Under the pieces are notes generated by a model. That model ran no database searches. It saw nothing but the letters and a program-made list of their open reading frames with translations, and was not told where the DNA came from. Source: Megascapheus bottae (lineage: Eukaryota > Chordata > Mammalia > Rodentia > Geomyidae). From it: a stretch of DNA of 64,000 bases. The position numbers were made by a program, and so were the translations under genes. The stretch spans positions 620,001-684,000 of the forward strand of contig JANJXV010000262.1 of NCBI GenBank assembly GCA_024803745.1, given 5' to 3'. This document shows positions 31,701-61,143 of the stretch, one piece after another (within the stretch, counting starts at the first letter, position 1; the number at the start of each line of letters is the position of its first letter).

Positions 31701-32495
31701 TGTGAAGTCACAGAATGGAGGTGTGTGAAGTCAAAAAATTGAGGTGTGTGAAGTCCTGGAATGGAGGTGTGTGAAGTCAAAGGAGGAGGTGTGTGAAGTC
31801 ATAGAATGCAGGTGTGTAAAGTCATAAAATGGAGATGTGTGAAGTCACAGAATGGAGCTGTGTGAAATCATAGAATGGAGGTGTGTGAAGTCAGAGAATC
31901 GAGGTGTGTGAAGTCACAGAATGGAGGTGCGTGAAGTCAGAATGGTGTTGTATGAAGTCACAGAATTGAGGTGTGTGAACTCATAGAATGTAGGTGTGTG
32001 AAGTCATGGATTGGACGTGTGTGAAATCAAAGAATGGAGGTGTGGGAAGTGAAAAAATGGAGGTGTGTGAAGTCACAGAATGGAGGTGTGTGAAGTCACA
32101 GAATGGAAGTGTGTGATGTCAAAATTGAGGTGTGTGAAGTCACAGAATGGAGGTGTGTGAAGTCAAAATGGAGCTGTGTGAAGTCAAAGAAAGAGGTGTG
32201 TGAAGTCATAGAATGGAGGTCTGTGAAGTCATGGAATGGAGGTTTGTGAGGTCAAATATTTGAAGTGTGTGAAGTTACAGAAAGGAGGTGTGTGAAGTCA
32301 TAGAATGGAGGTGTGTGAAGTCATAGAATGGAGGTGTGTGAAGTCACAGAAGGCAGGTGTGTGAAGTCACAGAATAGAGTTGTGTGAAATCACAATGGTG
32401 GTGTGTGAATTCATAGAATGGAGGTGTGTGAAGTGAAAGAATGGAGGTGTGTGAAGTCACATTGGAGGGGTGTGAAGTAACAGAATGGAGGTGTG
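28757..32495. repeat. Left flank of the array: older, about 1.33-kb period
   Basis: Monomers here vary more than in the centre. Rare variants recur at about 1,326-1,327 bp: TCAACTCAGAAAGG at 29,005 and 30,331, and GTGTGTGAAATCATAGAA followed by a shortened AGGT-TTGTGA form at 29,741 and 31,068. From about 32,095 the sequence changes into the end part of the central 1.5-1.8-kb unit (CAAATATTTGAAG marker at 32,253). Confidence 0.8.
28916..28923. promoter_or_regulatory. Perfect CRE palindrome in a satellite monomer (first of nine)
   Basis: TGACGTCA, the binding site of CREB/ATF factors, arises by an A-to-C change in the usual TGAAGTCA. Other exact copies lie at 31,094, 39,347, 40,230, 44,889, 45,772, 57,083, 58,375 and 62,929. 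Whether any is bound is unknown; each contains a CpG that could be methylated. Confidence 0.5.
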
Positions 32496-35400
32496 TCAAC
32501 TCAGAAAGGAGGTGTGTGAAGTCATAGAATGGAGGTGTGTGAAGTCATAGAATAGAGGTGTGTGAAATCATAGAATGGAGGTGTGTGAAGTCACAGAAAT
32601 GAGGTGTTTGAAGTCAAAATGGAAGTGTGTGAAGTCAGAATGGAGGTGTGTGAAGTCATAGAATTGAGGTGTGTGAAGTCATAGAATGGAGGTGTGTGAA
32701 GTCACAGAATGGAGGTGTGTGAACTCATAGAATGGAGGAGTGTGAAGTCATGGAATGGAGGTGTGTGAAGTCACAGATGGAGCTGTTTGAAGTCATAGAA
32801 TGGAGGTGTGTGAAGTCACAGAATGGAGGTGTGTGAAGTCACAGAATGGAGGTGTGTGAAGTCACAGAATGGAGGTGTGTGAAGTCACAGAATGGAGGTG
32901 TGTGAAGTCACAGAATGGAGGTGTGTGAAGTCACAGAATGGAGGTGTGTGAAGTCAAAGAATGGAGGTGTGTGAAGTCACAGAATGGAGGTGTGTGAATT
33001 CACAGAAGTGAGGTTTGTGAAGTTATAGAATGAATGTTTCTGAAGTAAGAATGAAGGTGTGTATAGCCATAGAATGGTGGTGTCTGAAGTCAAAATGAAG
33101 TTGTGTGAAGTCAAACAATGGAGGTGTGTGAAGTCACAGAATGGAGGTGTGTGAAGTTACAGAATGGAAGTGTGTGAAGTAAAAATGGAGGTGTGTGAAG
33201 TCAGAGAATGGAGGTGTGTGAAGTCAAATCATGGACGTGTGTGAAGTCAAAATTGTGGTGTGTGAAGTCACAAATGCAGGTGTGTGAAGTCACAGAATGG
33301 AGGTGTGTGAAGTCAAAATGGAGGTGTGTGAAGTCAAAGAATGGATGTGTTTGAAGTCATAGAATGGAGGTGTATGAAGCCATGGAATGGAGGTTTGTGA
33401 AGTCAAACATTGGAAGTGTGTGAAGTTCCAGAATGGAGGTGTGTGAAGTCATAGAATGGAGCTGTGTGAAGTCATAGAATGGAGGTGTGTGAAGTCAGAC
33501 TGCAGGTGTGTGAAGTCATAGAATGGAGGTGTGTGAAGGCATAGATTGGAAGTGTGTGAAGTCATAGAATGGAGGTGTGTGAAGTCACAGAATGGAGTTG
33601 TGTGAAGTCACAATGGAGGTGTGTGAAGTCATAGAATGGAGGTGTGTGAAGTCACAGAAAGGAGGTGTGTGAAGTCACAGAATGGAGTTGTGTGAAGTCA
33701 CAATGGAGGTGTGTGAAGTCATAGAATGGAGGTGTGTGAAATCAAAGAATGGAGGTTTGTTAAGTCATAGAATGGATTGTGTGTGAAATCATAGAATGGA
33801 GGTGTGTGAAGTCACAGAATTGAGGTGTGTAAAGTCACAGAGTGGAAGTGTGTGAAGTCACAGAATGGAAGTGTGTGATGTCAAAATTGACGTGTGTGAA
33901 GTCACAGAATGGAGGTGTGTGAAGTCATAATGGAGCTGTGTGAAGTCAAAGAAAGAGGTGTGTGAAGTCATAGAATGGATGTCTGTGAAGTCATGGAATG
34001 GAGGTTTGTGAGGTCAAATATTTGAAGTGTGTGAAGTTACAGAAAGGAGGTGTGTGAAGTCATAGAATGGAGGTGTGTGAAGTCATAGAATGGAGGTGTG
34101 TGAAGTCACAGAAGGCAGGTGTGTGAAGGCACAGAATAGAGTTGTGTGAAATCACAATGGTGGTGTGTGAATTCATAGAATGGGGGTGTGAGAAGTGAAA
34201 GAATGGAGGTGTGTGAAGTCACATTGGAGGTGTGTGAAGTAACAGAATGGAGGTGTGTCAACTCAGAAAGGAGGTGTGTGAAGTCATAGAATGGAGGTGT
34301 GTGAAGTCATAGAATAGTGGTGTGTGAAATCATAGAATGGAGGTGTGTGAAGTCACAGAAATGAGGTGTTTGAAGTCAAAATGGAAGTGTGTGAAGTCAG
34401 AATGGAGGTGTGTGAAGTCAGAATGGAGGTGTGTGAAGTCATAGAATGGAGGTGTGTGAAGTCACAGAATGGTGGTGTGTGAACTCATACAATGGAGGAG
34501 TGTGAAGTCATGGAATGGAGGTGTGTGAAGTCAAAGATGGAGGTGTTTGAAGTCATAGAATGGAGGTGTGTGAAGTCACAGAATGGAGGTGTGTGAAGTC
34601 ACAGAAGGGAGGTGTGTGAACTCAGAATGGAGGTGTGTGAATTCACAGAAGGGAGGTTTGTGAAGTTATAGAATGGATGTTTCTGAAGTTAGAATGAAGG
34701 TGTGTGAAGCCATAGAATGGAGGTGTGTGAAGTCAAAATGAAGGTGTGTGAAGTCAAACAATGGAGGTGTGTGAAGTCACAGAATGGAGGTGTGTGAAGT
34801 TACAGAATGGAAGTGTGTGAAGTAAAAATGGAGGTGTGTGAAGTCAGAGAATGGAGGTGTGTGAAGTCAAATCATGGACGTGTGTGAAGTCAAAATTGTG
34901 GTGTGTGAAGTCACAAATGCAGGTGTGTGAAGTCACAGAATGGAGGTGTGTGAAGTCAAAATGGAGGTGTGTGAAGTCAAAGAATGGATGTGTTTGAAGT
35001 CATAGAATGGAGGTGTATGAAGTCATGAAATGGAGGTTTGTGAAGTCAAACATTGGAAGTGTGAGAAGTTACAGAATGGAGGTGTGTGAAGTCATAGAAT
35101 GGAGGTGTGTGAAGCCATAGATTGGAAGTGTGTGAAGTCATAGAATGGAGGTGTGTGAAGTCATAGATTGAAGGTGTGTGGGAGTCATAGTATGGAGGTG
35201 TGTGAAGTCACAGAAAGGAGGCGTGTGAAGTCACAGAATGGAGTTGTGTGAAGTCACAATGGAGGTGTGTGAAGTCATAGAATGGAGGTGTGTGAAATCA
35301 AAGAATGGAGGTTTGTTAAGTCATAGAATGGATTGTGTGTGAAATCATAGAATGGAGGTGTGTGAAGTCACAGAATTGAAGTGTGTAAAGTCACAGAGTG

Positions 35401-38400
35401 GAGGTATGTGAAGTCACAGAATGGAAGTGTGTGATGTCAAAATTGAGGTGTGTGAAGTCACAGAATGGAGGTGTGTGAAGTCAAAATGGAGGTGTGTGAA
35501 GTCAAAGAAAGAGGTGTGTGAAGTCATAGAATGGATGTCTGTGAAGTCATGGAATGCAGGTTTGTGAGGTCAAATATTTGAAGTGTGTGAAGTTACAGAA
35601 AGGAGGTGTGTGAAGTCATAGAATGGAGGTGTGAGAAGTCATAGAATGGAGGTGTGTGAAGAAACAGAAGGCAGGTGTGTGAAGTCACAGAATAGAGTTG
35701 TGTGAAATCACAATGGTGGTGTGTGAATTCATAGAATGGAGGTGTGTGAAGTGAAAGAATGGAGGTGTGTGAAGTCACATTGGAGGTGTGTGAAGTAACA
35801 GAATGGAGGTGTGTCAACTCAGAAAGGAGGTGTGTGAAGTCATAGAATGGAGGTGTGTGAAGTCATAGAATAGACGTGTGTGAAATCATAGAATGGAGGT
35901 GTGTGAAGTCACAGAAATGAGGTGTTTGAAGTCAAAATGGAAGTGTGTGAAGTCAGAATGGAGGTGTGTGAAGTCATAGAATGGAGGTGTGTGAAGTCAT
36001 AGAATGGAGGTGTGTGAAGTCACAGAATGGAGGTGTGTGAACTCATAGAATGGAGGAGTGTGAAGTCATGGAATGGAGGTGTGTGAAGTCACAGATGGAG
36101 CTGTTTGAAGTCATAGAATGGAGGTGTGTGAAGTCACAGAATGGAGGTGTGTGAAGTCACAGAATGGAGGTGTGTGAAGTCACAGAATGGAGGTGTGTGA
36201 AGTCAAAGAATGGAGGTGTGTGAAGTCACAGAATGGAGGTGTGTGAATTCACAGAAGTGAGGTTTGTGAAGTTATAGAATGGATGTTTCTGAAGTAAGAA
36301 TGAAGGTGTGTATAGCCATAGAATGGTGGTGTCTGAAGTCAAAATGAAGGTGTGTGAAGTCAAACAATGGAGGTGTGTGAAGTCACAGAATGGAGGTGTG
36401 TGAAGTTACAGAATGGAAGTGTGTGAAGTAAAAATGGAGGTGTGTGAAGTCAGAGAATGGAAGTGTGTGAAGTCAAATCATGGACGTGTGTGAAGTCAAA
36501 ATTGTGGTGTGTGAAGTCACAAATGCAGGTGTGTGAAGTCACAGAATGGAGGTGTGTGAAGTCAAAATGGAGGTGTGTGAAGTCAAAGAATGGATGTGTT
36601 TGAAGTCATAGAATGGAGGTGTATGAAGCCATGGAATGGAGGTTTGTGAAGTCAAACATTGGAAGTGTGTGAAGTTCCAGAATGGAGGTGCGTGAAGTCA
36701 TAGAATGGAGGTGTGTGAAGTCAGAATGGAGGTGTGTGAAGTCAGACTGCAGGTGTGTGAAGTCATAGAATGGAGGTGTGTGAAGGCATAGATTGGAAGT
36801 GTGTGAAGTCATAGAATGGAGGTGTGTGAAGTCACAGAATGGAGTTGTGTGAAGTCACAATGGAGGTGTGTGAAGTCATAGAATGGAGGTGTGTGAAGTC
36901 ACAGAAAGGAGGTGTGTGAAGTCACAGAATGGAGTTGTGTGAAGTCACAATGGAGGTGTGTGAAGTCATAGAATGGAGGTGTGTGAAATCAAAGAATGGA
37001 GGTTTGTTAAGTCATAGAATGGATTGTGTGTGAAATCATAGAATGGAGGTGTGTGAAGTCACAGAATTGAGGTGTGTAAAGTCACAGAGTGGAAGTGTGT
37101 GAAGTCACAGAATGGAAGTGTGTGATGTCAAAATTGAGGTGTGTGAAGTCACAGAATGGAGGTGTGTGAAGTCAAAATGGAGCTGTGTGAAGTCAAAGAA
37201 AGAGGTGTGTGAAGTCATAGAATGGAGGTCTGTGAAGTCATGGAATGGAGGTTTGTGAGGTCAAATATTTGAAGTGTGTGAAGTTACAGAAAGGAGGTGT
37301 GTGAAGTCATAGAATGGAGGTGTGTGAAGTCATAGAATGGAGGTGTGTGAAGTCACAGAAGGCAGGTGTGTGAAGGCACAGAATAGAGTTGTGTGAAATC
37401 ACAATGGTGGTGTGTGAATTCATAGAATGGAGGTGTGTGAAGTGAAAGAATGGAGGTGTGTGAAGTCACATTGGAGGTGTGTGAAGTAACATAATGGAGG
37501 TGTGTCAACTCAGAAAGGAGGTGTGTGAAGTCATAGAATGGAGGTGTGTGAAGTCATAGAATAGAGGTGTGTGAAATCATAGAATGGAGGTGTGTGAAGT
37601 CACAGAAATGAGGTGTTTGAAGTCAAAATGGAAGTGTGTGAAGTCAGAATGGAGGTGTGTGAAGTCAGAATGGAGGTGTGTGAAATCATAGAATGGAGGT
37701 GTGTGAAGTCACAGAATGGTGGTGTGTGAACTCATACAATGGAGGAGTGTGAAGTCATGGAATGGAGGTGTGTGAAGTCAAAGATGGAGATGTTTGAAGT
37801 CATAGAATGGAGGTGTGTGAAGTCACAGAATGGAGGTGTGTGAAGTCACAGAATGGAGGTGTGTGAACTCAGAATGGAGGTGTGTGAATTCACAGAAGGG
37901 AGGTTTGTGAAGTTATAGAATGGATGTTTCTGAAGTTAGAATGAAGGTGTGTGAAGCCATAGAATGGAGGTGTGTGAAGTCAAAATGAAGGTGTGTGAAG
38001 TCAAACAATGGAGGTGTGTGAAGTCACAGAATGGAGGTGTGTGAAGTTACAGAATGGAAGTGTGTGAAGTAAAAATGGAGGTGTGTGAAGTCAGAGAATG
38101 GAGGTGTGTGAAGTCAAATCATGGACGTGTGTGAAGTCAAAATTGTGGTGTGTGAAGTCACAAATGCAGGTGTGTGAAGTCACAGAATGGAGGTGTGTGA
38201 AGTCAAAATGGGGTGTGTGAAGTCAAAGAATGGATGTGTTTGAAGTCATAGAATGGAGGTGTATGAAGTCATGGAATGGAGGTTTGTGAAGTCAAACATT
38301 GGAAGTGTGTGAAGTTCCAGAATGGAGGTGTGTGAAGTCATAGATTGAAGGTGTGTGGAAGTCATAGTATGGAGGTGTGTGAAGTCACAGAAAGGAGGCG

Positions 38401-41400
38401 TGTGAAGTCACAGAATGGAGTTCTGTGAAGTCACAATGGAGGTGTGTGAAGTCATAGAATGGAGGTGTGTGAAATCAAAGAATGGAGGTTTGTTAAGTCA
38501 TAGAATGTATTGTGTGTGAAATCATAGAATGGAGGTGTGTGAAGTCACAGAATTGAAGCGTGTAAAGTCACAGAGTGGAGGTGTGTGAAGTCACAGAATG
38601 GAAGTGTGTGATGTCAAAATTGAGGTGTGTGAAGTCACAGAATGGAGGTGTGTGAAGTCAAAATGGAGGTGTGTGAAGTCAAAGAAAGAGGTGTGTGAAG
38701 TCATAGAATGGATGTCTGTGAAGTCATGGAATGGAGGTTTGTGAGGTCAAATATTTGAAGTGTGTGAAGTTACAGAAAGGAGGTGTGTGAAGTCATAGAA
38801 TGGAGGTGTGTGAAGTCATAGAATGGAGGTGTGTGAAGAAACAGAAGGCAGGTGTGTGAAGTCACAGAATAGAGTTGTGTGAAATCACAATGGTGGTGTG
38901 TGAATTCATAGAATGGAGGTGTGTGAAGTGAAAGAATGGAGGTGTGTGAAGTCACATTGGAGGTGTGTGAAGTAACAGAATGGAGGTGTGTCAACTCAGA
39001 AAGGAGGTGTGTGAAGTCATAGAATGGAGGTGTGTGAAGTCATAGAATAGAGGTGTGTGAAATCATAGAATGGAGGTGTGTGAAGTCACAGAAATGAGGT
39101 GTTTGAAGTCAAAATGGAAGTGTGTGAAGTCAGAATGGAGGTGTGTGAAGTCATAGAATGGAGGTGTGTGAAGTCATAGAAGGGAGGTGTGTTTAGTCAC
39201 AGAATGGAGGTGTGTGAACTCAGAATGGAGGTGTGTGAACTCAGAATGGATGTGTGTGAATTCACAGAAGGGAGGTTTGTGAAGTTATAGAATGGATGTT
39301 TCTGAAGTAAGAATGAAGGTGTGTGAAGCCATAGAATGGAGGTGTGTGACGTCAAAATGAAGGTGTGTGAAGTCAAACAATGGAGGTGTGTGAAGTCAGA
39401 GAATGGAGGTGTGTGAAGTTACAGAATGGAAGTGTGTGAAGTAAAAATGGAGGTGTGTGAAGTCAGAGAATGGAGGTGTGTGAAGTCAAATCATGGACGT
39501 GTGTGAAGTCAAAATTGTGGTGTGTGAAGTCACAAATGCAGGTGTGTGCAGTCACAGAATGGAGGTGTGTGAAGTCAAAATGGAGGCGTGTGAAGTCAAA
39601 GAATGGAAGTGATTGAAGTCATAGAATGGAGGTGTATGAAGTCATGGAATGTAGGTTTGTGAAGTCAAACATTGGAAGTGTGTGAAGTTACAGAATGGAG
39701 GTGTGTGAAGTCATAGAATGGAGGTGTGTGAAGTCAGAGAATGGAGGTGTGTGAAGTCAGAATGCAGGTGTGTGAAGTCATAGAATGGAGGTGTGTGAAG
39801 TCATAGAATGGAGGTGTGTGAAGCCATAGATTGGAAGTGTGTGAAGTCATAGAATGGAGGTGTGTGAAGTCATAGATTGAAGGTGTGTGGAAGTCATAGT
39901 ATGTATGTTTGTGAAGTCACAGAAAGGAGGTGTGTGAAGTCACAGAATGGAGTTGTGTGAAGTCACAATGGAGGCGTGTGAAGTCATAGAATAGAGGTGT
40001 GTGAAATCAAAGAATGGAGGTTTAAGTCATAGAATGGATTGTGTGTGAAATCATAGAATGGAGGTGTGTGAAGTCACAGAATTGAGGTGTGTAAAGTCAC
40101 AGAGTGGTGGTGTGTGAAGTCACAGAATGGAGTTGTGTGTGAAGTCATAGAATGGAGGTGTGTGAAGTCACAGAATGCAGGTGTGTGATGTCAGAATGGA
40201 GGTGTGGGAAGTCACCGAATGGAGGTATGTGACGTCATAAATGTTGGTGTGTGAAGTCATAGAATGGAGGTGTGAAGTCATAGAATGGAGGTGTGTGAAG
40301 TCATAGAATGGAGTTGTGTGAAGTCACAGAAGGCAGGTGTGTGAAGTCACAGAATACAGTTGTGTGAAGTCATGTAATGGAGGTGTGTGAAGTCAGAATG
40401 CATGTGTGTGAAGTCATAGAATGGACGTGTGTGAAGTCATAGAATGGAGGTGTGTGAAGTCAAAGATTGGAAGTGTGGGAAGTCATAGAATGGAGGTGTG
40501 TGAAGTCATAGATTGAAGGTGTGTGGAAGGCATAGTATGGAGGTGTGTGAAGTCACAGAAAGGAGGTGTTTGAAGTCACAGAATGGAGGTGTGTGAAGTC
40601 AAAATGGAGGTGTGTGAAGTCAAAGAATGGAGGTGTGTGAAGTCATAGAATGGAGGTGTATGAAGTCATGGAATGGAGGTTTGTGAAGTCAAACATTGGA
40701 AGTGTGTGAAGTTACAGAATGGAGGTGTGTGAATTCATAGAATGGAGGTGTGTGAAGTCATAGAATGGAGGAGTGTGAAGTCAGAATGGAGATGTGTGAT
40801 GTCACATAATGGAGGTGTGTGAAGTCACAGAATGTTGGTGTGTGAAGTCATAGAATGGAGGTGTATGAAGTCATAGAATGGAGGTGTGTGAAGTTATAGA
40901 ATGGAGGTGTGTGAAGTCACAGGATGGAGGTGTGTGAAGTCATAGATTGGAAGTGTGTGAAGTCATATAATGGAGGTGTGTGAAGTAATAGAATGGAGGT
41001 TTGTGAAGTCAGAATGGAGATGTGTGAAGTCACATAATTGATTTGTGTGAAGTCATAGAATATTGGTGTGTGAAGTCCTAGATTGTAGGTGTATGAAGTC
41101 ATAGAATGGAGGTGTGTGAAGTCAGAATGCAGGTGTGTGAAGTCATAGAATGGAGCTTGGGAAGTCATAGAATGGAGGTGTGTGAAGTTATAGAATGGAG
41201 GTGTGTGAAGTCACAGAATCGAGTTGTGTGAAAACACAATGGAGGTGTGTGAAGTCATAGAATAGAGGTGTGTGAAGTCAGAATAGAGGTGTGCGAAGTC
41301 ATAGAATGGAGGTGTGTGAAGTCAGAATGGAGGTGTGTGAACTCATAGAATGGAGGTGAGTGAAGTCACAATGGAGGTGTGTGAAGTCCTAGAATGGGGG

Positions 41401-43018
41401 TTTTTGAAGTCATAGAATGGAGGTGTGTGAAGTCATAGAATGGAGGTGTGGGAAGTAAAAATGGAGTTTGTGAACTCATAGAATGAAGGTTGTGAAGTCA
41501 TGGAATGGAGGTGTGTGAAGTCAAAGAATGAAGGTGTGTGAAGTCAAACAATAGAGGTGTGTGAGGTGAAACAATGGAGGTGTGTGAAGTCACAAAATGG
41601 ATGTGTGTGAAGTCAAAACAGAGGTGTGTGAAGTCCCAAAATGGAGGTGTGTGGTCACAGAATGAAGGTGTGTGAAGTCAAAAAGGTGGTGTGTGAAGTC
41701 ACAAATGTACGTGTGTAAAGTCACAGAATGGAGGTGTGTGAAGTCAAAATGAGGTGTGTGAAGTCAAAGTATGTAGGTGTGTGAAGTCATCGAATGGAGG
41801 TATGTAAAGTCATGTCATGGAGGTGTGTGAAGTCACAGAATGGAGGTGTGTGAAGTCAGAATTGAGGTGTGCTAAGTCATATAATGCAGGTGTGTGAAGT
41901 CAGAATGTAGGTGTGTGAAGTCATAGAATGGAGGTGTGTGAAGTCAGAATGGAGGTGTGTGAACTCATAGAATGGAGGTGTGTGAAGTCACAATGGAGGT
42001 GTGTGAAGTCATAGAATGGTGTTGTGTGAAGTTACAGAATGGAGGTGTGTAAGTCATAGAATGGAGGTGTGTGAAGTCAGAAATTGAGGTGTGTGAAGTC
42101 ACAGAATATAGGTGTGGGAATTCAGAATGGAGGTGTGTGAAGTCATAGAATGGAGGTCTGTGAAGTCATGGAATGGAGGTGTGCGAAATCATAGAATGGA
42201 GGTCTCTGAAGTCACAGAATGGAGGTGTGTGAACACATCGAATGGAGGTGTGTGAAGTCAGAATGCAGGTGTGTGAAGTCACAGAATGGAGGTGTGTGAA
42301 GTCACAGAATGGACGAGTGTGAATTCAAAATTGTGATGTCTGAAGTCACAAATGGAGGTGTGTGAAGTCACAGAATTGTGGTGTGTGAAGTCAAAATGGA
42401 GGTGTATGAAGTCAAAGAAAGGAGGTGTGTGAAGTCATAGAATGGAGGTGTATGAAGTCATGGAATGGAGGTTTGTGAAGTCATAGAATGGAGATTTGTG
42501 AAGTCATAGAATGGATGTGTGTGAAGTCAGAATGGAGATGTGTGTAGTCACAGAATGGAGGTGTGTGAAGTCAAAGAATATTGGTGTGTGAAGTCATAGA
42601 ATGGAGGTGTGTAAAGTCTTAGAATGGAGGTGTGTGAAGTCTTAGAATGGAGGTGTGTGAAGTCAGAGAAGGAAGGTGTGTGAACTCACAGAATGGAAGT
42701 GTGTAAAGGCACAGAGTGCAGGTGTGTGAAGGCACAGAATGGAGGGGTGTGAAGTCAAGGAATGGCGATATGTGAAGTCACAGAATGGAGGGGTGTGAAG
42801 TCAGAATAGAGGTGTGCGAAGTCATAGAATGGAGGTGTGTGAAGTCAGAATGGAGCTGTGTGAACTCATAGAATGGAGGTGTGTGAAGTCACAATGGAGA
42901 TGTGCGAAGTCATAGAATGGTGGTTTTTGAAGTCACAGAATGGAGGTGTGTGAAGTCATAGAATGGAGGTGTGTGAAGTCAGATTGGAGGTATGTGAAGT
43001 CACAGAATGGAGGTGTGT
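32496..43018. repeat. Super-repeat 1 (10.5 kb)
   Basis: Bounded by the marker TCAACTCAGAAA and divided by it at 34,258, 35,814, 37,505 and 38,991. This gives units of 1,762, 1,556, 1,691 and 1,486 bp and a last unit of 4,027 bp. Units share ordered rare monomers such as GATGTTTCTGAAGT, AATCATGGACGTG and CAAATATTTGAAG. The last unit carries its own extra variants between about 40,100 and 43,000. Confidence 0.9.
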
Positions 43019-48540: not shown

Positions 48541-51500
48541 CAACTCAGAAATGAGGTGTGTGAAGTCATAGAATGGAGGTGTGTGAAGTCATAGAATAGA
48601 GGTGTGTGAAATCATAGAATGGAGGTGTGTGAAGTCACAGAAATGAGGTGTTTGAAGTCAAAATGGAAGTGTGTGAAGTCAGAATGGAGGTGTGTGAAGT
48701 CATAGAATTGAGGTGTGTGAAGTCATAGAATGGAGGTGTGTGAAGTCACAGAATGGAGGTGTGTGAACTCATAGAATGGAGGAGTGTGAAGTCATGGAAT
48801 GGAGGTGTGTGAAGTCACAGATGGAGCTGTTTGAAGTCATAGAATGGAGGTGTGTGAAGTCACAGAATGGAGGTGTGTGAAGTCACAGAATGGAGGTGTG
48901 TGAAGTCACAGAATGGAGGTGTGTGAAGTAACAGAATGGAGGTGTGTGAAGTCACAGAATGGAGGTGTGTGAAGTCACAGAATGGAGGTGTGTGAAGTCA
49001 AAGAATGGAGGTGTGTGAAGTCACAGAATGGAGGTGTGTGAATTCACAGAAGTGAGGTTTGTGAAGTTATAGAATGAATGTTTCTGAAGTAAGAATGAAG
49101 GTGTGTATAGCCATAGAATGGTGGTGTCTGAAGTCAAAATGAAGTTGTGTGAAGTCAAACAATGGAGGTGTGTGAAGTCACAGAATGGAGGTGTGTGAAG
49201 TTACAGAATGGAAGTGTGTGAAGTAAAAATGGAGGTGTGTGAAGTCATAGAATGGAGGTGTGTGAAGTCAAATCATGGACGTGTGTGAAGTCAAAATTGT
49301 GGTGTGTGAAGTCACAAATGCAGGTGTGTGAAGTCACAGAATGGAGGTGTGTGAAGTCAAAATGGAGGTGTGTGAAGTCAAAGAATGGATGTGTTTGAAG
49401 TCATAGAATGGAGGTGTATGAAGCCATGGAATGGAGGTTTGTGAAGTCAAACATTGGAAGTGTGTGAAGTTCCAGAATGGAGGTGTGTGAAGTCATAGAA
49501 TGGAGGTGTGTGAAGTCATAGAATGGAGGTGTGTGAAGTCAGACTGCAGGTGTGTGAAGTCATAGAATGGAGGTGTGTGAAGGCATAGATTGGAAGTGTG
49601 TGAAGTCATAGAATGGAGGTGTGTGAAGTCACAGAATGGAGTTGTGTGAAGTCACAATGGAGGTGTGTGAAGTCATAGAATGGAGGTGTGTGAAGTCACA
49701 GAAAGGAGGTGTGTGAAGTCACAGAATGGAGTTGTGTGAAGTCACAATGGAGGTGTGTGAAGTCATAGAATGGAGGTGTGTGAAATCAAAGAATGGAGGT
49801 TTGTTAAGTCATAGAATGGATTGTGTGTGAAATCATAGAATGGAGGTGTGTGAAGTCACAGAATTGAGGTGTGTAAAGTCACAGAGTGGAAGTGTGTGAA
49901 GTCACAGAATGGAAGTGTGTGATGTCAAAATTGACGTGTGTGAAGTCACAGAATGGAGGTGTGTGAAGTCAAAATGGAGCTGTGTGAAGTCAAAGAAAGA
50001 GGTGTGTGAAGTCATAGAATGGAGGTCTGTGAAGTCATGGAATGGAGGTTTGTGAGGTCAAATATTTGAAGTGTGTGAAGTTACAGAAAGGAGGTGTGTG
50101 AAGTCATAGAATGGAGGTGTGTGAAGTCATAGAATGGAGGTGTGTGAAGTCACAGAAGGCAGGTGTGTGAAGGCACAGAATAGAGTTGTGTGAAATCACA
50201 AAGGTGGTGTGTGAATTCATAGAATGGGGGTGTGTGAAGTGAAAGAATGGAGGTGTGTGAAGTCACATTGGAGGTGTGTGAAGTAACAGAATGGAGGTGT
50301 GTCAACTCAGAAAGGAGGTGTGTGAAGTCATAGAATGGAGGTGTGTGAAGTCATAGAATAGTGGTGTGTGAAATCATAGAATGGAGGTGTGTGAAGTCAC
50401 AGAAATGAGGTGTTTGAAGTCAAAATGGAAGTGTGTGAAGTCAGAATGGAGGTGTGTGAAGTCAGAATGGAGGTGTGTGAAGTCATAGAATGGAGGTGTG
50501 TGAAGTCACAGAATGGTGGTGTGTGAACTCATACAATGGAGGAGTGTGAAGTCATGGAATGGAGGTGTGTGAAGTCAAAGATGGAGGTGTTTGAAGTCAT
50601 AGAATGGAGGTGTGTGAAGTCACAGAATGGAGGTGTGTGAAGTCACAGAAGGGAGGTGTGTGAACTCAGAATGGAGGTGTGTGAATTCACAGAAGGGAGG
50701 TTTGTGAAGTTATAGAATGGATGTTTCTGAAGTTAGAATGAAGGTGTGTGAAGCCATAGAATGGAGGTGTGTGAAGTCAAAATGAAGGTGTGTGAAGTCA
50801 AACAATGGAGGTGTGTGAAGTCACAGAATGGAGGTGTGTGAAGTTACAGAATGGAAGTGTGTGAAGTAAAAATGGAGGTGTGTGAAGTCAGAGAATGGAG
50901 GTGTGTGAAGTCAAATCATGGACGTGTGTGAAGTCAAAATTGTGGTGTGTGAAGTCACAAATGCAGGTGTGTGAAGTCACAGAATGGAGGTGTGTGAAGT
51001 CAAAATGGAGGTGTGTGAAGTCAAAGAATGGATGTGTTTGAAGTCATAGAATGGAGGTGTATGAAGTCATGGAATGGAGGTTTGTGAAGTCAAACATTGG
51101 AAGTGTGAGAAGTTACAGAATGGAGGTGTGTGAAGTCATAGAATGGAGGTGTGTGAAGTCAGAGAATGGAGGTGTGTGAAGTCAGACTGCAGGTGTGTGA
51201 AGTCATAGAATGGAGGTGTGTGAAGCCATAGATTGGAAGTGTGTGAAGTCATAGAATGGAGGTGTGTGAAGTCATAGATTGAAGGTGTGTGGGAGTCATA
51301 GTATGGAGGTGTGTGAAGTCACAGAAAGGAGGCGTGTGAAGTCACAGAATGGAGTTGTGTGAAGTCACAATGGAGGTGTGTGAAGTCATAGAATGGAGGT
51401 GTGTGAAATCAAAGAGTGGAGGTTTGTTAAGTCATAGAATGGATTGTGTGTGAAATCATAGAATGGAGGTGTGTGAAGTCACAGAATTGAGGTGTGTAAA

Positions 51501-54500
51501 GTCACAGAGTGGAAGTGTGTGAAGTCACAGAATGGAAGTGTGTGATGTCAAAATTGACGTGTGTGAAGTCACAGAATGGAGGTGTGTGAAGTCAAAATGG
51601 AGCTGTGTGAAGTCAAAGAAAGAGGTGTGTGAAGTCATAGAATGGAGGTCTGTGAAGTCATGGAATGGAGGTTTGTGAGGTCAAATATTTGAAGTGTGTG
51701 AAGTTACAGAAAGGAGGTGTGTGAAGTCATAGAATGGAGGTGTGTGAAGTCATAGAATGGAGGTGTGTGAAGTCACAGAAGGCAGGTGTGTGAAGGCACA
51801 GAATAGAGTTGTGTGAAATCACAATGGTGGTGTGTGAATTCATAGAATGGGGGTGTGTGAAGTGAAAGAATGGAGGTGTGTGAAGTCACATTGGAGGTGT
51901 GTGAAGTAACAGAATGGAGGTGTGTCAACTCAGAAAGGAGGTGTGTGAAGTCATAGAATGGAGGTGTGTGAAGTCATAGAATAGTGGTGTGTGAAATCAT
52001 AGAATGGAGGTGTGTGAAGTCACAGAAATGAGGTGTTTGAAGTCAAAATGGAAGTGTGTGAAGTCAGAATGGAGGTGTGTGAAGTCAGAATGGAGGTGTG
52101 TGAAGTCATAGAATGGAGGTGTGTGAAGTCACAGAATGGTGGTGTGTGAACTCATACAATGGAGGAGTGTGAAGTCATGGAATGGAGGTGTGTGAAGTCA
52201 AAGATGGAGGTGTTTGAAGTCATAGAATGGAGGTGTGTGAAGTCACAGAATGGAGGTGTGTGAAGTCACAGAAGGGAGGTGTGTGAACTCAGAATGGAGG
52301 TGTGTGAATTCACAGAAGGGAGGTTTGTGAAGTTATAGAATGGATGTTTCTGAAGTTAGAATGAAGGTGTGTGAAGCCATAGAATGGAGGTGTGTGAAGT
52401 CAAAATGAAGGTGTGTGTAGTCAAACAATGGAGGTGTGTGAAGTCACAGAATGGAGGTGTGTGAAGTTACAGAATGGAAGTGTGTGAAGTAAAAATGGAG
52501 GTGTGTGAAGTCAGAGAATGGAGGTGTGTGAAGTCAAATCATGGACGTGTGTGAAGTCAAAATTGTGGTGTGTGAAGTCACAAATGCAGGTGTGTGAAGT
52601 CACAGAATGGAGGTGTGTGAAGTCAAAATGGAGGTGTGTGAAGTCAAAGAATGGATGTGTTTGAAGTCATAGAATGGAGGTGTATGAAGTCATGGAATGG
52701 AGGTTTGTGAAGTCAAACATTGGAAGTGTGAGAAGTTACAGAATGGAGGTGTGTGAAGTCATAGAATGGAGGTGTGTGAAGTCAGAGAATGGAGGTGTGT
52801 GAAGTCAGACTGCAGGTGTGTGAAGTCATAGAATGGAGGTGTGTGAAGCCATAGATTGGAAGTGTGTGAAGTCATAGAATGGAGGTGTGTGAAGTCATAG
52901 ATTGAAGGTGTGTGGGAGTCATAGTATGGAGGTGTGTGAAGTCACAGAAAGGAGGCGTGTGAAGTCACAGAATGGAGTTGTGTGAAGTCACAATGGAGGT
53001 GTGTGAAGTCATAGAATGGAGGTGTGTGAAATCAAAGAATGGAGGTTTGTTAAGTCATAGAATGGATTGTGTGTGAAATCATAGAATGGAGGTGTGTGAA
53101 GTCACAGAATTGAAGTGTGTAAAGTCACAGAGTGGAGGTGTGTGAAGTCACAGAATGGAAGTGTGTGATGTCAAAATTGAGGTGTGTGAAGTCACAGAAT
53201 GGAGGTGTGTGAAGTCAAAATGGAGGTGTGTGAAGTCAAAGAAAGAGGTGTGTGAAGTCATAGAATGGATGTCTGTGAAGTCATGGAATGGAGGTTTGTG
53301 AGGTCAAATATTTGAAGTGTGTGAAGTTACAGAAAGGAGGTGTGTGAAGTCATAGAATGGAGGTGTGAGAAGTCATAGAATGGAGGTGTGTGAAGAAACA
53401 GAAGGCAGGTGTGTGAAGTCACAGAATAGAGTTGTGTGAAATCACAATGGTGGTGTGTGAATTCATAGAATGGAGGTGTGTGAAGTGAAAGAATGGAGGT
53501 GTGTGAAGTCACATTGGAGGTGTGTGAAGTAACAGAATGGAGGTGTGTCAACTCAGAAAGGAGGTGTGTGAAGTCATAGAATGGAGGTGTGTGAAGTCAT
53601 AGAATAGACGTGTGTGAAATCATAGAATGGAGGAGTGTGAAGTCACAGAAATGAGGTGTTTGAAGTCAAAATGGAAGTGTGTGAAGTCAGAATGGAGGTG
53701 TGTGAAGTCATAGAATGGAGGTGTGTGAAGTCATAGAATGGAGGTGTGTGAAGTCACAGAATGGAGGTGTGTGAACTCATAGAATGGAGGAGTGTGAAGT
53801 CATGGAATGGAGGTGTGTGAAGTCACAGATGGAGCTGTTTGAAGTCATAGAATGGAGGTGTGTGAAGTCACAGAATGGAGGTGTGTGAAGTCACAGAATG
53901 GAGGTGTGTGAAGTCACAGAATGGAGGTGTGTGAAGTCAAAGAATGGAGGTGTGTGAAGTCACAGAATGGAGGTGTGTGAATTCACAGAAGTGAGGTTTG
54001 TGAAGTTATAGAATGGATGTTTCTGAAGTAAGAATGAAGGTGTGTATAGCCATAGAATGGTGGTGTCTGAAGTCAAAATGAAGGTGTGTGAAGTCAAACA
54101 ATGGAGGTGTGTGAAGTCACAGAATGGAGGTGTGTGAAGTTACAGAATGGAAGTGTGTGAAGTAAAAATGGAGGTGTGTGAAGTCAGAGAATGGAAGTGT
54201 GTGAAGTCAAATCATGGACGTGTGTGAAGTCAAAATTGTGGTGTGTGAAGTCACAAATGCAGGTGTGTGAAGTCACAGAATGGAGGTGTGTGAAGTCAAA
54301 ATGGAGGTGTGTGAAGTCAAAGAATGGATGTGTTTGAAGTCATAGAATGGAGGTGTATGAAGCCATGGAATGGAGGTTTGTGAAGTCAAACATTGGAAGT
54401 GTGTGAAGTTCCAGAATGGAGGTGCGTGAAGTCATAGAATGGAGGTGTGTGAAGTCATAGAATGGAGGTGTGTGAAGTCAGACTGCAGGTGTGTGAAGTC

Positions 54501-57500
54501 ATAGAATGGAGGTGTGTGAAGGCATAGATTGGAAGTGTGTGAAGTCATAGAATGGAGGTGTGTGAAGTCACAGAATGGAGTTGTGTGAAGTCACAATGGA
54601 GGTGTGTGAAGTCATAGAATGGAGGTGTGTGAAGTCACAGAAAGGAGGTGTGTGAAGTCACAGAATGGAGTTGTGTGAAGTCACAATGGAGGTGTGTGAA
54701 GTCATAGAATGGAGGTGTGTGAAATCAAAGAATGGAGGTTTGTTAAGTCATAGAATGGATTGTGTGTGAAATCATAGAATGGAGGTGTGTGAAGTCACAG
54801 AATTGAGGTGTGTAAAGTCACAGAGTGGAAGTGTGTGAAGTCACAGAATGGAAGTGTGTGATGTCAAAATTGACGTGTGTGAAGTCACAGAATGGAGGTG
54901 TGTGAAGTCAAAATGGAGCTGTGTGAAGTCAAAGAAAGAGGTGTGTGAAGTCATAGAATGGAGGTCTGTGAAGTCATGGAATGGAGGTTTGTGAGGTCAA
55001 ATATTTGAAGTGTGTGAAGTTACAGAAAGGAGGTGTGTGAAGTCATAGAATGGAGGTGTGTGAAGTCATAGAATGGAGGTGTGTGAAGTCACAGAAGGCA
55101 GGTGTGTGAAGGCACAGAATAGAGTTGTGTGAAATCACAATGGTGGTGTGTGAATTCATAGAATGGAGGTGTGTGAAGTGAAAGAATGGAGGTGTGTGAA
55201 GTCACATTGGAGGTGTGTGAAGTAACATAATGGAGGTGTGTCAACTCAGAAAGGAGGTGTGTGAAGTCATAGAATGGAGGTGTGTGAAGTCATAGAATAG
55301 AGGTGTGTGAAATCATAGAATGGAGGTGTGTGAAGTCACAGAAATGAGGTGTTTGAAGTCAAAATGGAAGTGTGTGAAGTCAGAATGGAGGTGTGTGAAG
55401 TCAGAATGGAGGTGTGTGAAATCATAGAATGGAGGTGTGTGAAGTCACAGAATGGTGGTGTGTGAACTCATACAATGGAGGAGTGTGAAGTCATGGAATG
55501 GAGGTGTGTGAAGTCAAAGATGGAGATGTTTGAAGTCATAGAATGGAGGTGTGTGAAGTCACAGAATGGAGGTGTGTGAAGTCACAGAATGGAGGTGTGT
55601 GAACTCAGAATGGAGGTGTGTGAATTCACAGAAGGGAGGTTTGTGAAGTTATAGAATGGATGTTTCTGAAGTTAGAATGAAGGTGTGTGAAGCCATAGAA
55701 TGGAGGTGTGTGAAGTCAAAATGAAGGTGTGTGAAGTCAAACAATGGAGGTGTGTGAAGTCACAGAATGGAGGTGTGTGAAGTTACAGAATGGAAGTGTG
55801 TGAAGTAAAAATGGAGGTGTGTGAAGTCAGAGAATGGAGGTGTGTGAAGTCAAATCATGGACGTGTGTGAAGTCAAAATTGTGGTGTGTGAAGTCACAAA
55901 TGCAGGTGTGTGAAGTCACAGAATGGAGGTGTGTGAAGTCAAAATGGGGTGTGTGAAGTCAAAGAATGGATGTGTTTGAAGTCATAGAATGGAGGTGTAT
56001 GAAGTCATGGAATGGAGGTTTGTGAAGTCAAACATTGGAAGTGTGTGAAGTTCCAGAATGGAGGTGTGTGAAGTCATAGATTGAAGGTGTGTGGAAGTCA
56101 TAGTATGGAGGTGTGTGAAGTCACAGAAAGGAGGCGTGTGAAGTCACAGAATGGAGTTCTGTGAAGTCACAATGGAGGTGTGTGAAGTCATAGAATGGAG
56201 GTGTGTGAAATCAAAGAATGGAGGTTTGTTAAGTCATAGAATGTATTGTGTGTGAAATCATAGAATGGAGGTGTGTGAAGTCACAGAATTGAAGCGTGTA
56301 AAGTCACAGAGTGGAGGTGTGTGAAGTCACAGAATGGAAGTGTGTGATGTCAAAATTGAGGTGTGTGAAGTCACAGAATGGAGGTGTGTGAAGTCAAAAT
56401 GGAGGTGTGTGAAGTCAAAGAAAGAGGTGTGTGAAGTCATAGAATGGATGTCTGTGAAGTCATGGAATGGAGGTTTGTGAGGTCAAATATTTGAAGTGTG
56501 TGAAGTTACAGAAAGGAGGTGTGTGAAGTCATAGAATGGAGGTGTGTGAAGTCATAGAATGGAGGTGTGTGAAGAAACAGAAGGCAGGTGTGTGAAGTCA
56601 CAGAATAGAGTTGTGTGAAATCACAATGGTGGTGTGTGAATTCATAGAATGGAGGTGTGTGAAGTGAAAGAATGGAGGTGTGTGAAGTCACATTGGAGGT
56701 GTGTGAAGTAACAGAATGGAGGTGTGTCAACTCAGAAAGGAGGTGTGTGAAGTCATAGAATGGAGGTGTGTGAAGTCATAGAATAGAGGTGTGTGAAATC
56801 ATAGAATGGAGGTGTGTGAAGTCACAGAAATGAGGTGTTTGAAGTCAAAATGGAAGTGTGTGAAGTCAGAATGGAGGTGTGTGAAGTCATAGAATGGAGG
56901 TGTGTGAAGTCATAGAAGGGAGGTGTGTTTAGTCACAGAATGGAGGTGTGTGAACTCAGAATGGAGGTGTGTGAACTCAGAATGGATGTGTGTGAATTCA
57001 CAGAAGGGAGGTTTGTGAAGTTATAGAATGGATGTTTCTGAAGTAAGAATGAAGGTGTGTGAAGCCATAGAATGGAGGTGTGTGACGTCAAAATGAAGGT
57101 GTGTGAAGTCAAACAATGGAGGTGTGTGAAGTCACAGAATGGAGGTGTGTGAAGTTACAGAATGGAAGTGTGTGAAGTAAAAATGGAGGTGTGTGAAGTC
57201 AGAGAATGGAGGTGTGTGAAGTCAAATCATGGACGTGTGTGAAGTCAAAATTGTGGTGTGTGAAGTCACAAATGCAGGTGTGTGAAGTCACAGAATGGAG
57301 GTGTGTGAAGTCAAAATGGAGGCGTGTGAAGTCAAAGAATGGAAGTGATTGAAGTCATAGAATGGAGGTGTATGAAGTCATGGAATGTAGGTTTGTGAAG
57401 TCAAACATTGGAAGTGTGTGAAGTTAGAGAATGGAGGTGTGTGAAGTCATAGAATGGAGGTGTGTGAAGTCAGAGAATGGAGGTGTGTGAAGTCAGAATG

Positions 57501-60500
57501 CAGGTGTGTGAAGTCATAGAATGGAGGTGTGTGAAGTCATAGAATGGAGGTGTGTGAAGCCATAGATTGGAAGTGTGTGAAGTCATAGAATGGAGGTGTG
57601 TGAAGTCATAGATTGAAGGTGTGTGGAAGTCATAGTATGTATGTTTGTGAAGTCACAGAAAGGAGGTGTGTGAAGTCACAGAATGGAGTTGTGTGAAGTC
57701 ACAATGGAGGTGTGTGAAGTCAAAATGGAGGCGTGTGAAGTCAAAGAATGGAAGTGATTGAAGTCATAGAATGGAGGTGTATGAAGTCATGGAATGTAGG
57801 TTTGTGAAGTCAAACATTGGAAGTGTGTGAAGTTAGAGAATGGAGGTGTGTGAAGTCATAGAATGGAGGTGTGTGAAGTCAGAGAATGGAGGTGTGTGAA
57901 GTCAGAATGCAGGTGTGTGAAGTCATAGAATGGAGGTGTGTGAAGTCATAGAATGGAGGTGTGTGAAGCCATAGATTGGAAGTGTGTGAAGTCATAGAAT
58001 GGAGGTGTGTGAAGTCATAGATTGAAGGTGTGTGGAAGTCATAGTATGTATGTTTGTGAAGTCACAGAAAGGAGGTGTGTGAAGTCACAGAATGGAGTTG
58101 TGTGAAGTCACAATGGAGGTGTGTGAAGTCATAGAATAGAGGTGTGTGAAATCAAAGAATGGAGGTTTAAGTCATAGAATGGATTGTGTGTGAAATCATA
58201 GAATGGAGGTGTGTGAAGTCACAGAATTGAGGTGTGTAAAGTCACAGAGTGGTGGTGTGTGAAGTCACAGAATGGAGTTGTGTGTGAAGTCATAGAATGG
58301 AGGTGTGTGAAGTCACAGAATGCAGGTGTGTGATGTCAGAATGGAGGTGTGGGAAGTCACCGAATGGAGGTATGTGACGTCATAAATGTTGGTGTGTGAA
58401 GTCATAGAATGGAGGTGTGAAGTCATAGAATGGAGGTGTGTGAAGTCATAGAATGGAGTTGTGTGAAGTCACAGAAGGCAGGTGTGTGAAGTCACAGAAT
58501 ACAGTTGTGTGAAGTCATGTAATGGAGGTGTGTGAAGTCAGAATGCATGTGTGTGAAGTCATAGAATGGACGTGTGTGAAGTCATAGAATGGAGGTGTGT
58601 GAAGTCAAAGATTGGAAGTGTGGGAAGTCATAGAATGGAGGTGTGTGAAGTCATAGATTGAAGGTGTGTGGAAGGCATAGTATGGAGGTGTGTGAAGTCA
58701 CAGAAAGGAGGTGTTTGAAGTCACAGAATGGAGGTGTGTGAAGTCAAAATGGAGGTGTGTGAAGTCAAAGAATGGAGGTGTGTGAAGTCATAGAATGGAG
58801 GTGTATGAAGTCATGGAATGGAGGTTTGTGAAGTCAAACATTGGAAGTGTGTGAAGTTACAGAATGGAGGTGTGTGAATTCATAGAATGGAGGTGTGTGA
58901 AGTCATAGAATGGAGGAGTGTGAAGTCAGAATGGAGATGTGTGATGTCACATAATGGAGGTGTGTGAAGTCACAGAATGTTGGTGTGTGAAGTCATAGAA
59001 TGGAGGTGTATGAAGTCATAGAATGGAGGTGTGTGAAGTTATAGAATGGAGGTGTGTGAAGTCACAGGATGGAGGTGTGTGAAGTCATAGATTGGAAGTG
59101 TGTGAAGTCATATAATGGAGGTGTGTGAAGTAATAGAATGGAGGTTTGTGAAGTCAGAATGGAGATGTGTGAAGTCACATAATTGATTTGTGTGAAGTCA
59201 TAGAATATTGGTGTGTGAAGTCCTAGATTGTAGGTGTATGAAGTCATAGAATGGAGGTGTGTGAAGTCAGAATGCAGGTGTGTGAAGTCATAGAATGGAG
59301 CTTGGGAAGTCATAGAATGGAGGTGTGTGAAGTTATAGAATGGAGGTGTGTGAAGTCACAGAATCGAGTTGTGTGAAGACACAATGGAGGTGTGTGAAGT
59401 CATAGAATAGAGGTGTGTGAAGTCAGAATAGAGGTGTGCGAAGTCATAGAATGGAGGTGTGTGAAGTCAGAATGGAGGTGTGTGAACTCATAGAATGGAG
59501 GTGAGTGAAGTCACAATGGAGGTGTGTGAAGTCCTAGAATGGGGGTTTTTGAAGTCATAGAATGGAGGTGTGTGAAGTCATAGAATGGAGGTGTGGGAAG
59601 TAAAAATGGAGTTTGTGAACTCATAGAATGAAGGTTGTGAAGTCATGGAATGGAGGTGTGTGAAGTCAAAGAATGAAGGTGTGTGAAGTCAAACAATAGA
59701 GGTGTGTGAGGTGAAACAATGGAGGTGTGTGAAGTCACAAAATGGATGTGTGTGAAGTCAAAACAGAGGTGTGTGAAGTCCCAAAATGGAGGTGTGTGGT
59801 CACAGAATGAAGGTGTGTGAAGTCAAAAAGGTGGTGTGTGAAGTCACAAATGTACGTGTGTAAAGTCACAGAATGGAGGTGTGTGAAGTCAAAGTATGTA
59901 GGTGTGTGAAGTCATCGAATGGAGGTATGTAAAGTCATGTCATGGAGGTGTGTGAAGTCACAGAATGGAGGTGTGTGAAGTCAGAATTGAGGTGTGCTAA
60001 GTCATATAATGCAGGTGTGTGAAGTCAGAATGTAGGTGTGTGAAGTCATAGAATGGAGGTGTGTGAAGTCAGAATGGAGGTGTGTGAACTCATAGAATGG
60101 AGGTGTGTGAAGTCACAATGGAGGTGTGTGAAGTCATAGAATGGTGTTCTGTGAAGTTACAGAATGGAGGTGTGTAAGTCATAGAATGGAGGTGTGTGAA
60201 GTCAGAAATTGAGGTGTGTGAAGTCACAGAATATAGGTGTGGGAATTCAGAATGGAGGTGTGTGAAGTCATAGAATGGAGGTCTGTGAAGTCATGGAATG
60301 GAGGTGTGCGAAATCATAGAATGGAGGTCTCTGAAGTCACAGAATGGAGGTGTGTGAACACATCGAATGGAGGTGTGTGAAGTCAGAATGCAGGTGTGTG
60401 AAGTCACAGAATGGAGGTGTGTGAAGTCACAGAATGGACGAGTGTGAAGTCAAAATTGTGATGTCTGAAGTCACAAATGGAGGTGTGTGAAGTCACAGAA

Positions 60501-61143
60501 TTGTGGTGTGTGAAGTCAAAATGGAGGTGTATGAAGTCAAAGAAAGGAGGTGTGTGAAGTCATAGAATGGAGGTGTATGAAGTCATGGAATGGAGGTTTG
60601 TGAAGTCATAGAATGGAGATTTGTGAAGTCATAGAATGGATGTGTGTGAAGTCAGAATGGAGATGTGTGTAGTCACAGAATGGAGGTGTGTGAAGTCAAA
60701 GAATATTGGTGTGTGAAGTCATAGAATGGAGGTGTGTAAAGTCTTAGAATGGAGGTGTGTGAAGTCTTAGAATGGAGGTGTGTGAAGTCAGAGAAGGAAG
60801 GTGTGTGAAGTCACAGAATGGAAGTGTGTAAAGGCACAGAGTGCAGGTGTGTGAAGGCACAGAATGGAGGGGTGTGAAGTCAAGGAATGGCGATATGTGA
60901 AGTCACAGAATGGAGGGGTGTGAAGTCAGAATAGAGGTGTGCGAAGTCATAGAATGGAGGTGTGTGAAGTCAGAATGGAGCTGTGTGAACTCATAGAATG
61001 GAGGTGTGTGAAGTCACAATGGAGATGTGCGAAGTCATAGAATGGTGGTTTTTGAAGTCACAGAATGGAGGTGTGTGAAGTCATAGAATGGAGGTGTGTG
61101 AAGTCAGATTGGAGGTATGTGAAGTCACAGAATGGAGGTGTGT
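48540..61143. repeat. Super-repeat 3 (12.6 kb)
   Basis: Marker positions 48,540, 50,302, 51,925, 53,548, 55,241, 56,727 and 61,143 give units of 1,762, 1,623, 1,623, 1,693, 1,486 and 4,416 bp. The 1,762 and 1,486 lengths equal those in super-repeat 1. The second unit is duplicated (1,623 twice, against 1,556 in super-repeat 1). The last unit is longer by 409 bp and shorter by 20 bp relative to super-repeat 1, which accounts exactly for 4,416 versus 4,027. Confidence 0.9.
57312..58129. repeat. 409-bp direct duplication inside super-repeat 3
   Basis: CAAAATGGAGGCGTGTGAAG begins at 57,312 and again at 57,721. The two 409-bp stretches carry the same succession of variants (GAAGTGATTGAAGTCATAG, AATGTAGGTTTGTGAAG, GTATGTATGTTTGTG). 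Super-repeats 1 and 2 have it once. Confidence 0.92.

What the first reader, a model, noticed from the sequence alone, without database searches (positions are those of the whole stretch)
32496..61143. Three-tier higher-order structure: 23 bp, about 1.5-1.8 kb, about 10-12 kb
Seen: the marker TCAACTCAGAAA divides the centre into units of 1,762/1,556/1,691/1,486/4,027 bp, then a 5,522-bp block, then 1,762/1,623/1,623/1,693/1,486/4,416 bp. Identical lengths recur in the same order, and rare monomers keep fixed offsets (10,522, 5,522, 5,542, 12,603 bp). Such nested order is known for centromeric alpha satellite; for a 23-bp repeat in a rodent it is notable.
Basis: seen in the sequence. Interest (0 to 1): 0.88.

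Follow-up and report, generated by a model that had tools for sequence, protein, structure and literature searches.

The report
Nested repeats in a 23-base satellite
A 35-kb stretch of tandem 23-base repeats really is built from repeats inside repeats inside repeats, a known way in which satellite DNA grows by misaligned exchange, so it is a tidy new example and not a new kind of thing.

Summary
A 23-bp satellite (1,564 monomers) runs unbroken from 28,755 to the window end. From 32,087 to 61,183 it shows long diagonals; 20 of 20 monomer shuffles gave none. The order is deeper than three tiers. The ~1.6-kb units fall into two types, A and B (A-B 97.2-97.7%, within type 99.0-100%, one mixed unit set aside), which alternate as a ~3.2-kb dimer. 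The block A-B-A-B-L (10.5 kb, L = 4.0 kb) is present twice (partners 99.5-100%), with a partial copy (A-L, 5.5 kb) between. One unit (S7) is a B/A recombinant at the seam of a 1,623-bp tandem duplication. Best explanation: an ordinary satellite array growing by homologous out-of-register exchange. That this is notable for a short repeat in a rodent is weakened: mouse TRPC-21A (21-bp monomer) is reported with higher-order repeats in all its arrays (PMC3218096), and human HSat2 has a published 1.77-kb unit (PMC4022460). Species, chromosome position, function and raw-read support could not be tested. New member of a known kind.

The parts
28755..64000 (+). uninterrupted 23-bp satellite array, consensus TGTGTGAAGTCACAGAATGGAGG, 1,564 monomers, cut by the window end
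   Evidence: TRF (28,755-63,998, period 23); wraparound decomposition (monomers of 20-25 bp, plus one of 14 bp at the window end)
28755..32086 (+). left edge of the array without long diagonals; holds diverged marker-led heads at 29,005 and 30,331
   Evidence: 148 uncovered monomers; first 400 bases 93.9% and 90.6% to S1 head
32087..32495 (+). truncated unit tail (S0), left end of the higher-order domain
   Evidence: 98.0-99.3% to tails of S1-S4
32496..34257 (+). unit S1, type A
34258..35813 (+). unit S2, type B
35814..37504 (+). unit S3, type A
37505..38990 (+). unit S4, type B, 0 mismatches to S10
38991..43017 (+). long block L1; 39,232-40,088 is S-related
   Evidence: L1-L3 99.8%; SW 73.1 against null maximum 6.8 of 5 shuffles
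43018..44532 (+). unit S5, type A, 3' truncated, 0 mismatches to S6 where aligned
   Evidence: the S5/L2 border is set from the 5,542 offset, no marker stands there
44533..48539 (+). long block L2; L2+S6 is a tandem duplicate of L1+S5 (offsets 5,542, 5,522, 5,545)
48540..50301 (+). unit S6, type A, partner of S1 (99.5%)
50302..51924 (+). unit S7, B head and A tail, switch between 51,333 and 51,491; product of a 1,623-bp tandem duplication
51925..53547 (+). unit S8, type B, partner of S2 (99.7%)
53548..55240 (+). unit S9, type A, partner of S3 (99.9%)
55241..56726 (+). unit S10, type B, partner of S4 (100%)
56727..61142 (+). long block L3 with an internal 409-bp duplication (exact 429-bp match 57,294/57,703)
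61183..64000 (+). right part without long diagonals; 61,993-63,470 resembles 31,045-32,447 (92.4%); an S-like head at 63,790 (96.7% over 211 bases)

Best explanation
This is a non-coding satellite array whose nested order is the record of successive rounds of homologous out-of-register exchange (unequal sister-chromatid or inter-homologue crossover). Inferred order: old 23-bp monomers diverged; a stretch of ~70 monomers became a ~1.6-1.76 kb unit; two versions (A, B) were amplified as an AB dimer; A-B-A-B plus the neighbouring L block (10.5 kb) was duplicated; a 5.5-kb, a 1,623-bp and a 409-bp tandem duplication and several monomer-scale gains and losses were added. Shown: the units, their identities, the A/B recombinant and its seam, and the kept 23-bp register at the seams examined. 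Inferred: crossover as the mechanism and the time order. The array itself most likely has no sequence-specific task beyond being heterochromatin-type repeat DNA (inference; no test of function was possible).
For: Identity rises with the size of the unit: random monomers differ on average by 3.76 edits in 23 bp; A against B 97.2-97.7%; A-A 99.2-100% and B-B 99.0-100% (S7 set aside); block partners S1-S6 99.5, S2-S8 99.7, S3-S9 99.9, S4-S10 100, L1-L3 99.8%. S7 carries B letters up to the last A/B-diagnostic column 1171 and A letters from column 1329. The seam matches a 1,623-bp tandem duplication with 3 mismatches from 49,711 to 51,415. Separate trees put S7 with B by its head and with A by its tail, each across a 100-support branch. 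The monomers around the seams at 44.55, 51.42, 57.70 and 61.18 kb are 21-24 bp long, as elsewhere, which homology-guided exchange predicts and blunt joining does not. No inverted 20-mers in the array, so all copies are direct.
Against: Replication slippage, break-induced or rolling-circle amplification and gene conversion can give similar patterns, and the small indels may be slippage. The tail-tree support for grouping S7 with S5/S6 inside A is low (36), so only the A against B assignment is firm. No raw reads, second haplotype or relative could be seen.
Confidence: 0.78

Rival explanations
1. Assembly artefact: haplotypes or repeat copies joined falsely in tandem, making the 5.5- and 10.5-kb copies look like a tier.
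For: Block partners differ by only 0-0.5%, within a possible heterozygosity range; longest exact repeat 2,973 bp.
Against: Copies differ by scattered substitutions and by indels of 20, 23, 67 and 409 bp; the partial copy A-L and the recombinant S7 are not what a simple haplotype join gives; the older A/B difference (97.2-97.7%) is large for heterozygosity.
Confidence: 0.1
2. Active centromere satellite, in which the higher-order repeat is kept by selection for kinetochore function, as proposed for alpha satellite.
For: Uninterrupted array with a stretch of closely similar units in its middle.
Against: No CENP-B box on either strand (motif recalled); a CENP-B box is not obligatory (recalled), so this is weak. 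Position in the chromosome unknown; the left flank has L1 pieces and a zinc-finger-like stretch.
Confidence: 0.1
3. Rolling-circle (extrachromosomal circle) amplification and reinsertion made the tiers.
For: Direct tandem copies with near-identical units.
Against: Unit lengths vary (1,486-1,762 for full S units) and the order A B A B L / A L / A B/A B A B L is irregular, whereas a rolling circle is expected to give uniform units.
Confidence: 0.07
4. A transcribed or coding tandem repeat (protein minisatellite or strand-specific repeat RNA).
For: Very strong strand asymmetry: GC skew 0.69 in the array against -0.03 in the left flank.
Against: Longest ORF listed in the array is 83 aa (starts ATG, GTG, TTG; ORFs running off the window end not listed); no Rfam match at gathering score; base skew follows from the monomer itself.
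Confidence: 0.03

Closest known systems
Mouse TRPC-21A satellite (PMC3218096; sections 9 and 16 read, other passages seen)
   Same: Rodent tandem repeat with 21-bp monomer, all arrays with higher-order structure, 60-mer units, 2,017-bp units of two subunits, longest array ~30 kb.
   Different: The mouse arrays have 48-50% GC (Table 4), while this one has about 43% G+C, nearly all G on one strand; the sequences could not be compared because the mouse monomer is not printed in the sections read.
Human satellite 2 (HSat2; PMC4022460, passages seen)
   Same: Simple-sequence satellite with a kb-scale repeat unit (published 1.77-kb unit); its authors liken the pattern to a multimeric higher-order repeat.
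   Different: ATTCC-derived (recalled); no sequence relation tested.
Human HSat1A nested tandem repeat (PMC9909926, passages seen)
   Same: 42-bp monomer with a second period (9-mer, 378 bp).
   Different: One higher tier only is reported in the passages seen.
[quoted passage not shown]
   Same: Divergent monomers inside near-identical multi-monomer units.
   Different: 171-bp monomer, CENP-B boxes and centromere role (recalled); period and box were tested and not met, role not shown.
Bovine 1.706 satellite (recalled from memory; paper searches returned nothing)
   Same: Recalled as a ~2.35-kb unit built from 23-bp subrepeats.
   Different: Not tested; recalled only.

Membership tests
satellite DNA with higher-order repeats (general class) | tandem head-to-tail monomers over kilobases | tested here: met
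satellite DNA with higher-order repeats (general class) | monomers within a unit differ more than whole units do from each other | tested here: met
   mean 3.76 edits per random monomer pair against 97.2-100% between units
satellite DNA with higher-order repeats (general class) | regular iteration of the top unit | tested here: inconclusive
   ten S units of 1.49-1.76 kb, but only two full and one partial copy of the 10.5-kb block, window cut at 64,000
alpha satellite / CENP-B-binding centromeric satellite | 171-bp monomer | tested here: not met
   period 23
alpha satellite / CENP-B-binding centromeric satellite | CENP-B box | tested here: not met
   0 matches on both strands of the array
alpha satellite / CENP-B-binding centromeric satellite | CENP-A chromatin | not testable with these tools
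   needs ChIP or CUT&RUN
Mouse TRPC-21A | sequence similarity to the 21-bp monomer | not tested
   monomer sequence not printed in the sections read
Mouse TRPC-21A | pericentromeric location | not testable with these tools
   own genome could not be reached

The most novel reading that the evidence does not exclude
A previously undescribed satellite family with at least four, possibly five, nested levels (23 bp, ~1.6 kb, ~3.2 kb AB dimer, ~10.5 kb block, and perhaps a ~31-kb layer, since 61,993-63,470 resembles 31,045-32,447 at 92.4% against a background of 84.2-88.5% in 9 comparisons), laid out as a young homogenised centre between older edges, like the layered expansions described for human centromeres (recalled).
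Probability: 0.3. Interest if true: 0.5.

Novelty: new member of a known kind. Interest (0 to 1): 0.32.

Why it matters
The window holds a nearly readable history of how a satellite array grows: successive rounds left their own divergence classes, and one crossover-type seam (S7) can be placed within about 160 bp. That makes it a good worked case for testing models of unequal exchange in a short-monomer satellite. It does not change what is known about satellites.

Tried and rejected
A coding array: rejected (longest listed ORF 83 aa). Structured RNA: no Rfam family at gathering score in the window. Two or more TTAGGG, CENP-B box, ACACAGCGGG (kangaroo-rat HS-beta motif, recalled) and four or more AAG: 0 each on both strands of the array. 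Canonical G-quadruplex: 0 on the + strand, the only strand tested; a loose two-G pattern gave 61, without a control. Inverted repeats in the array: no 20-mers. Origin of the monomer in the left flank: best match 9 mismatches of 23 on + and 7 on -, while 20 shuffled flanks gave 7-9. An intermediate 67-bp (three-monomer) tier suggested by a TRF row: not supported; identity at lag 3 is 0.024 against a background of 0.021. Internal repeats of L: its two halves score 7.1 over 4 monomers against a maximum of 6.1 in 5 shuffles, too little to claim. Segment 61,183-61,550 as a unit tail: 84.6-85.4% over its length to ten tails, background level. A whole-array gapped self-BLAST did not help, because 23-bp register alone gives ~84% identity at the offsets listed. 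PMC8122249 passages gave nothing used here.

Nine paper searches were made. Those for 23-bp + satellite + higher-order repeat + rodent and for bovine or cattle satellites returned nothing. The Pacific pocket mouse genome paper (PMC9348616, listing only) shows 0 uses of the word satellite. I do not claim that this satellite is absent from print.

Dropped before a count: in the background control, 12 random segments were drawn and 3 near the compared segments were skipped, leaving 9. S7 was set aside when within-type and between-type ranges were given; it is 97.8-98.1% to A and 98.6-99.3% to B.

Full report
Observation. Tandem Repeats Finder gives a period-23 array from 28,755 to 63,998 (an overlapping row gives period 67). 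My own decomposition gives 1,564 monomers to 64,000, 1,129 of 23 bp and 324 of 21 bp, in 345 variants, with no interruption. Shared 50-mers pile up at offsets 12,603, 17,736, 5,542, 16,044, 18,145, 1,623 and others; the longest exact repeat is 2,973 bp (45,234/57,837) and the next 2,260 bp (37,139/54,875). On the monomer string there are 57 diagonals of 25 monomers or more in which each 20-monomer window is at least 60% identical, and none in 20 of 20 shuffles of monomer order at a laxer setting. These diagonals cover 82.4% of monomers, nearly all of 32,087-61,183 (two single monomers missing), leaving 148 monomers at the left and 125 at the right uncovered.

Anatomy. Taking the marker as unit start, and setting the S5/L2 border at 44,533 from the 5,542 offset where no marker stands, gives S1-S4, L1, S5, L2, S6-S10, L3. 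Global alignment of the ten S units shows two types: A (S1, S3, S5, S6, S9) and B (S2, S4, S8, S10), with S7 mixed. A-B identity is 97.2-97.7%, A-A 99.2-100%, B-B 99.0-100%. The third block is 12,603 bp because it has the extra 1,623-bp unit S7, a 409-bp duplication inside L3 (net +389 against L1, which has 20 bp more elsewhere), 67 bp more in S8 than in S2, and 2 bp more in S9 than in S3.

Block partners. S1-S6 99.5%, S2-S8 99.7%, S3-S9 99.9%, S4-S10 100%, L1-L3 99.8%. Shared indels agree with this pairing: S4 and S10 share a 136-bp and a 1-bp gap, and S1 and S6 alone have no gap at all. The middle copy is a tandem duplicate: L1+S5 and L2+S6 align at offsets 5,542, 5,522 and 5,545, the steps being a 20-bp and a 23-bp indel.

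A placed exchange. S7 has B letters at the A/B-diagnostic columns up to 1171 and A letters from column 1329, which is 51,333 to 51,491 in the window. At offset 1,623 the stretch 49,711-51,415 has 3 mismatches, after which 14 mismatches follow up to 52,087. This is what one out-of-register exchange by one unit between a B and an A unit would leave. Trees from columns 1-1262 and 1263-1762 place S7 on the B and on the A side of a 100-support branch; the finer grouping within A is weak (support 36).

Edges. The left 3.3 kb and the stretch after 61,183 are not long-diagonal copies. The marker-led heads at 29,005, 30,331 and 61,551 are 93.9%, 90.6% and 90.1% like the S1 head over about 400 bases, no background having been computed for that length; 32,087-32,495 is a 98.0-99.3% unit tail; 61,993-63,470 is 92.4% like 31,045-32,447 against a background of 84.2-88.5% (9 values); and the 211 bases from 63,790 are 96.7% like the S1 head. 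Monomer-level local alignment agrees: right part against left edge 89.3 (null maximum 8.8), right part against S1-S4 34.6 (7.1), left edge against L1 19.2 (6.2), right part against L1 18.0 (5.9), five shuffles each. Older relatives therefore lie on both sides of a younger centre. A ~31-kb layer is possible but rests on one pair at the window's end. The edges are not further from the 23-bp consensus than the centre, so this is not simple edge decay.

What it does. No listed ORF over 83 aa, no Rfam family, no CENP-B box or telomere repeat. The strand asymmetry is extreme (GC skew 0.69; CpG observed/expected 0.11), but follows from the monomer. I take it as non-coding satellite DNA and put the mechanism in how it grows: homologous, out-of-register exchange. 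The 23-bp register is kept at the four seams examined. Crossover itself is inferred.

Setting. Of seven flank ORFs scanned against Pfam, two matched: L1 ORF1 (PF02994, E 1.1e-23) and a reverse transcriptase piece (PF00078, E 8.9e-26). A zinc-finger-like stretch with in-frame stops lies at 4,060-4,890 (read by eye). SINE-like pieces reach the array edge near 28,750; that they look like those of kangaroo rats and pocket mice is recalled and untested.

Known kinds. PMC3218096 (sections 9 and 16 read; other passages seen) describes mouse TRPC-21A: 21-bp monomer, higher-order repeats in all arrays, 60-mer units, 2,017-bp units with two subunits. PMC4022460 (passages) mentions a published 1.77-kb HSat2 unit, likens the pattern to a multimeric higher-order repeat, and names unequal crossover. 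PMC9909926 (passages) gives HSat1A a 42-bp monomer with a 9-mer period. Short-monomer satellites with larger tiers are thus known, one of them in a rodent.

Verdict. Confirmed observation; interpretation right on structure and overstated on rarity. New member of a known kind; interest 0.32.

Noticed in passing
4060-4890 (-): Zinc-finger-like C2H2 repeats (84-bp period in TRF) with in-frame stops in the frame read, so probably a decayed gene.
   Followed up: partly
12281-13285 and 17090-17536 (-): Two similar L1 ORF1 pieces about 4.8 kb apart (by eye); the first matches PF02994, the second was not scanned. A reverse transcriptase piece lies at 14,522-15,082.
   Followed up: partly
28560-28754: A SINE-like element on the - strand (recalled type) ends within a few bases of the first satellite monomer, so the array edge may sit in or beside a SINE.
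   Followed up: no
61993-63470 and 31045-32447: Segments outside the two ends of the higher-order domain resemble each other (92.4%), a possible ~31-kb layer.
   Followed up: partly
57294-58131: 409-bp tandem duplication inside L3 with a 429-bp exact match, so a recent-looking event.
   Followed up: yes
28755-64000: Extreme strand asymmetry: C only 6.8% and G 36.3% on the + strand, GC skew 0.69.
   Followed up: no
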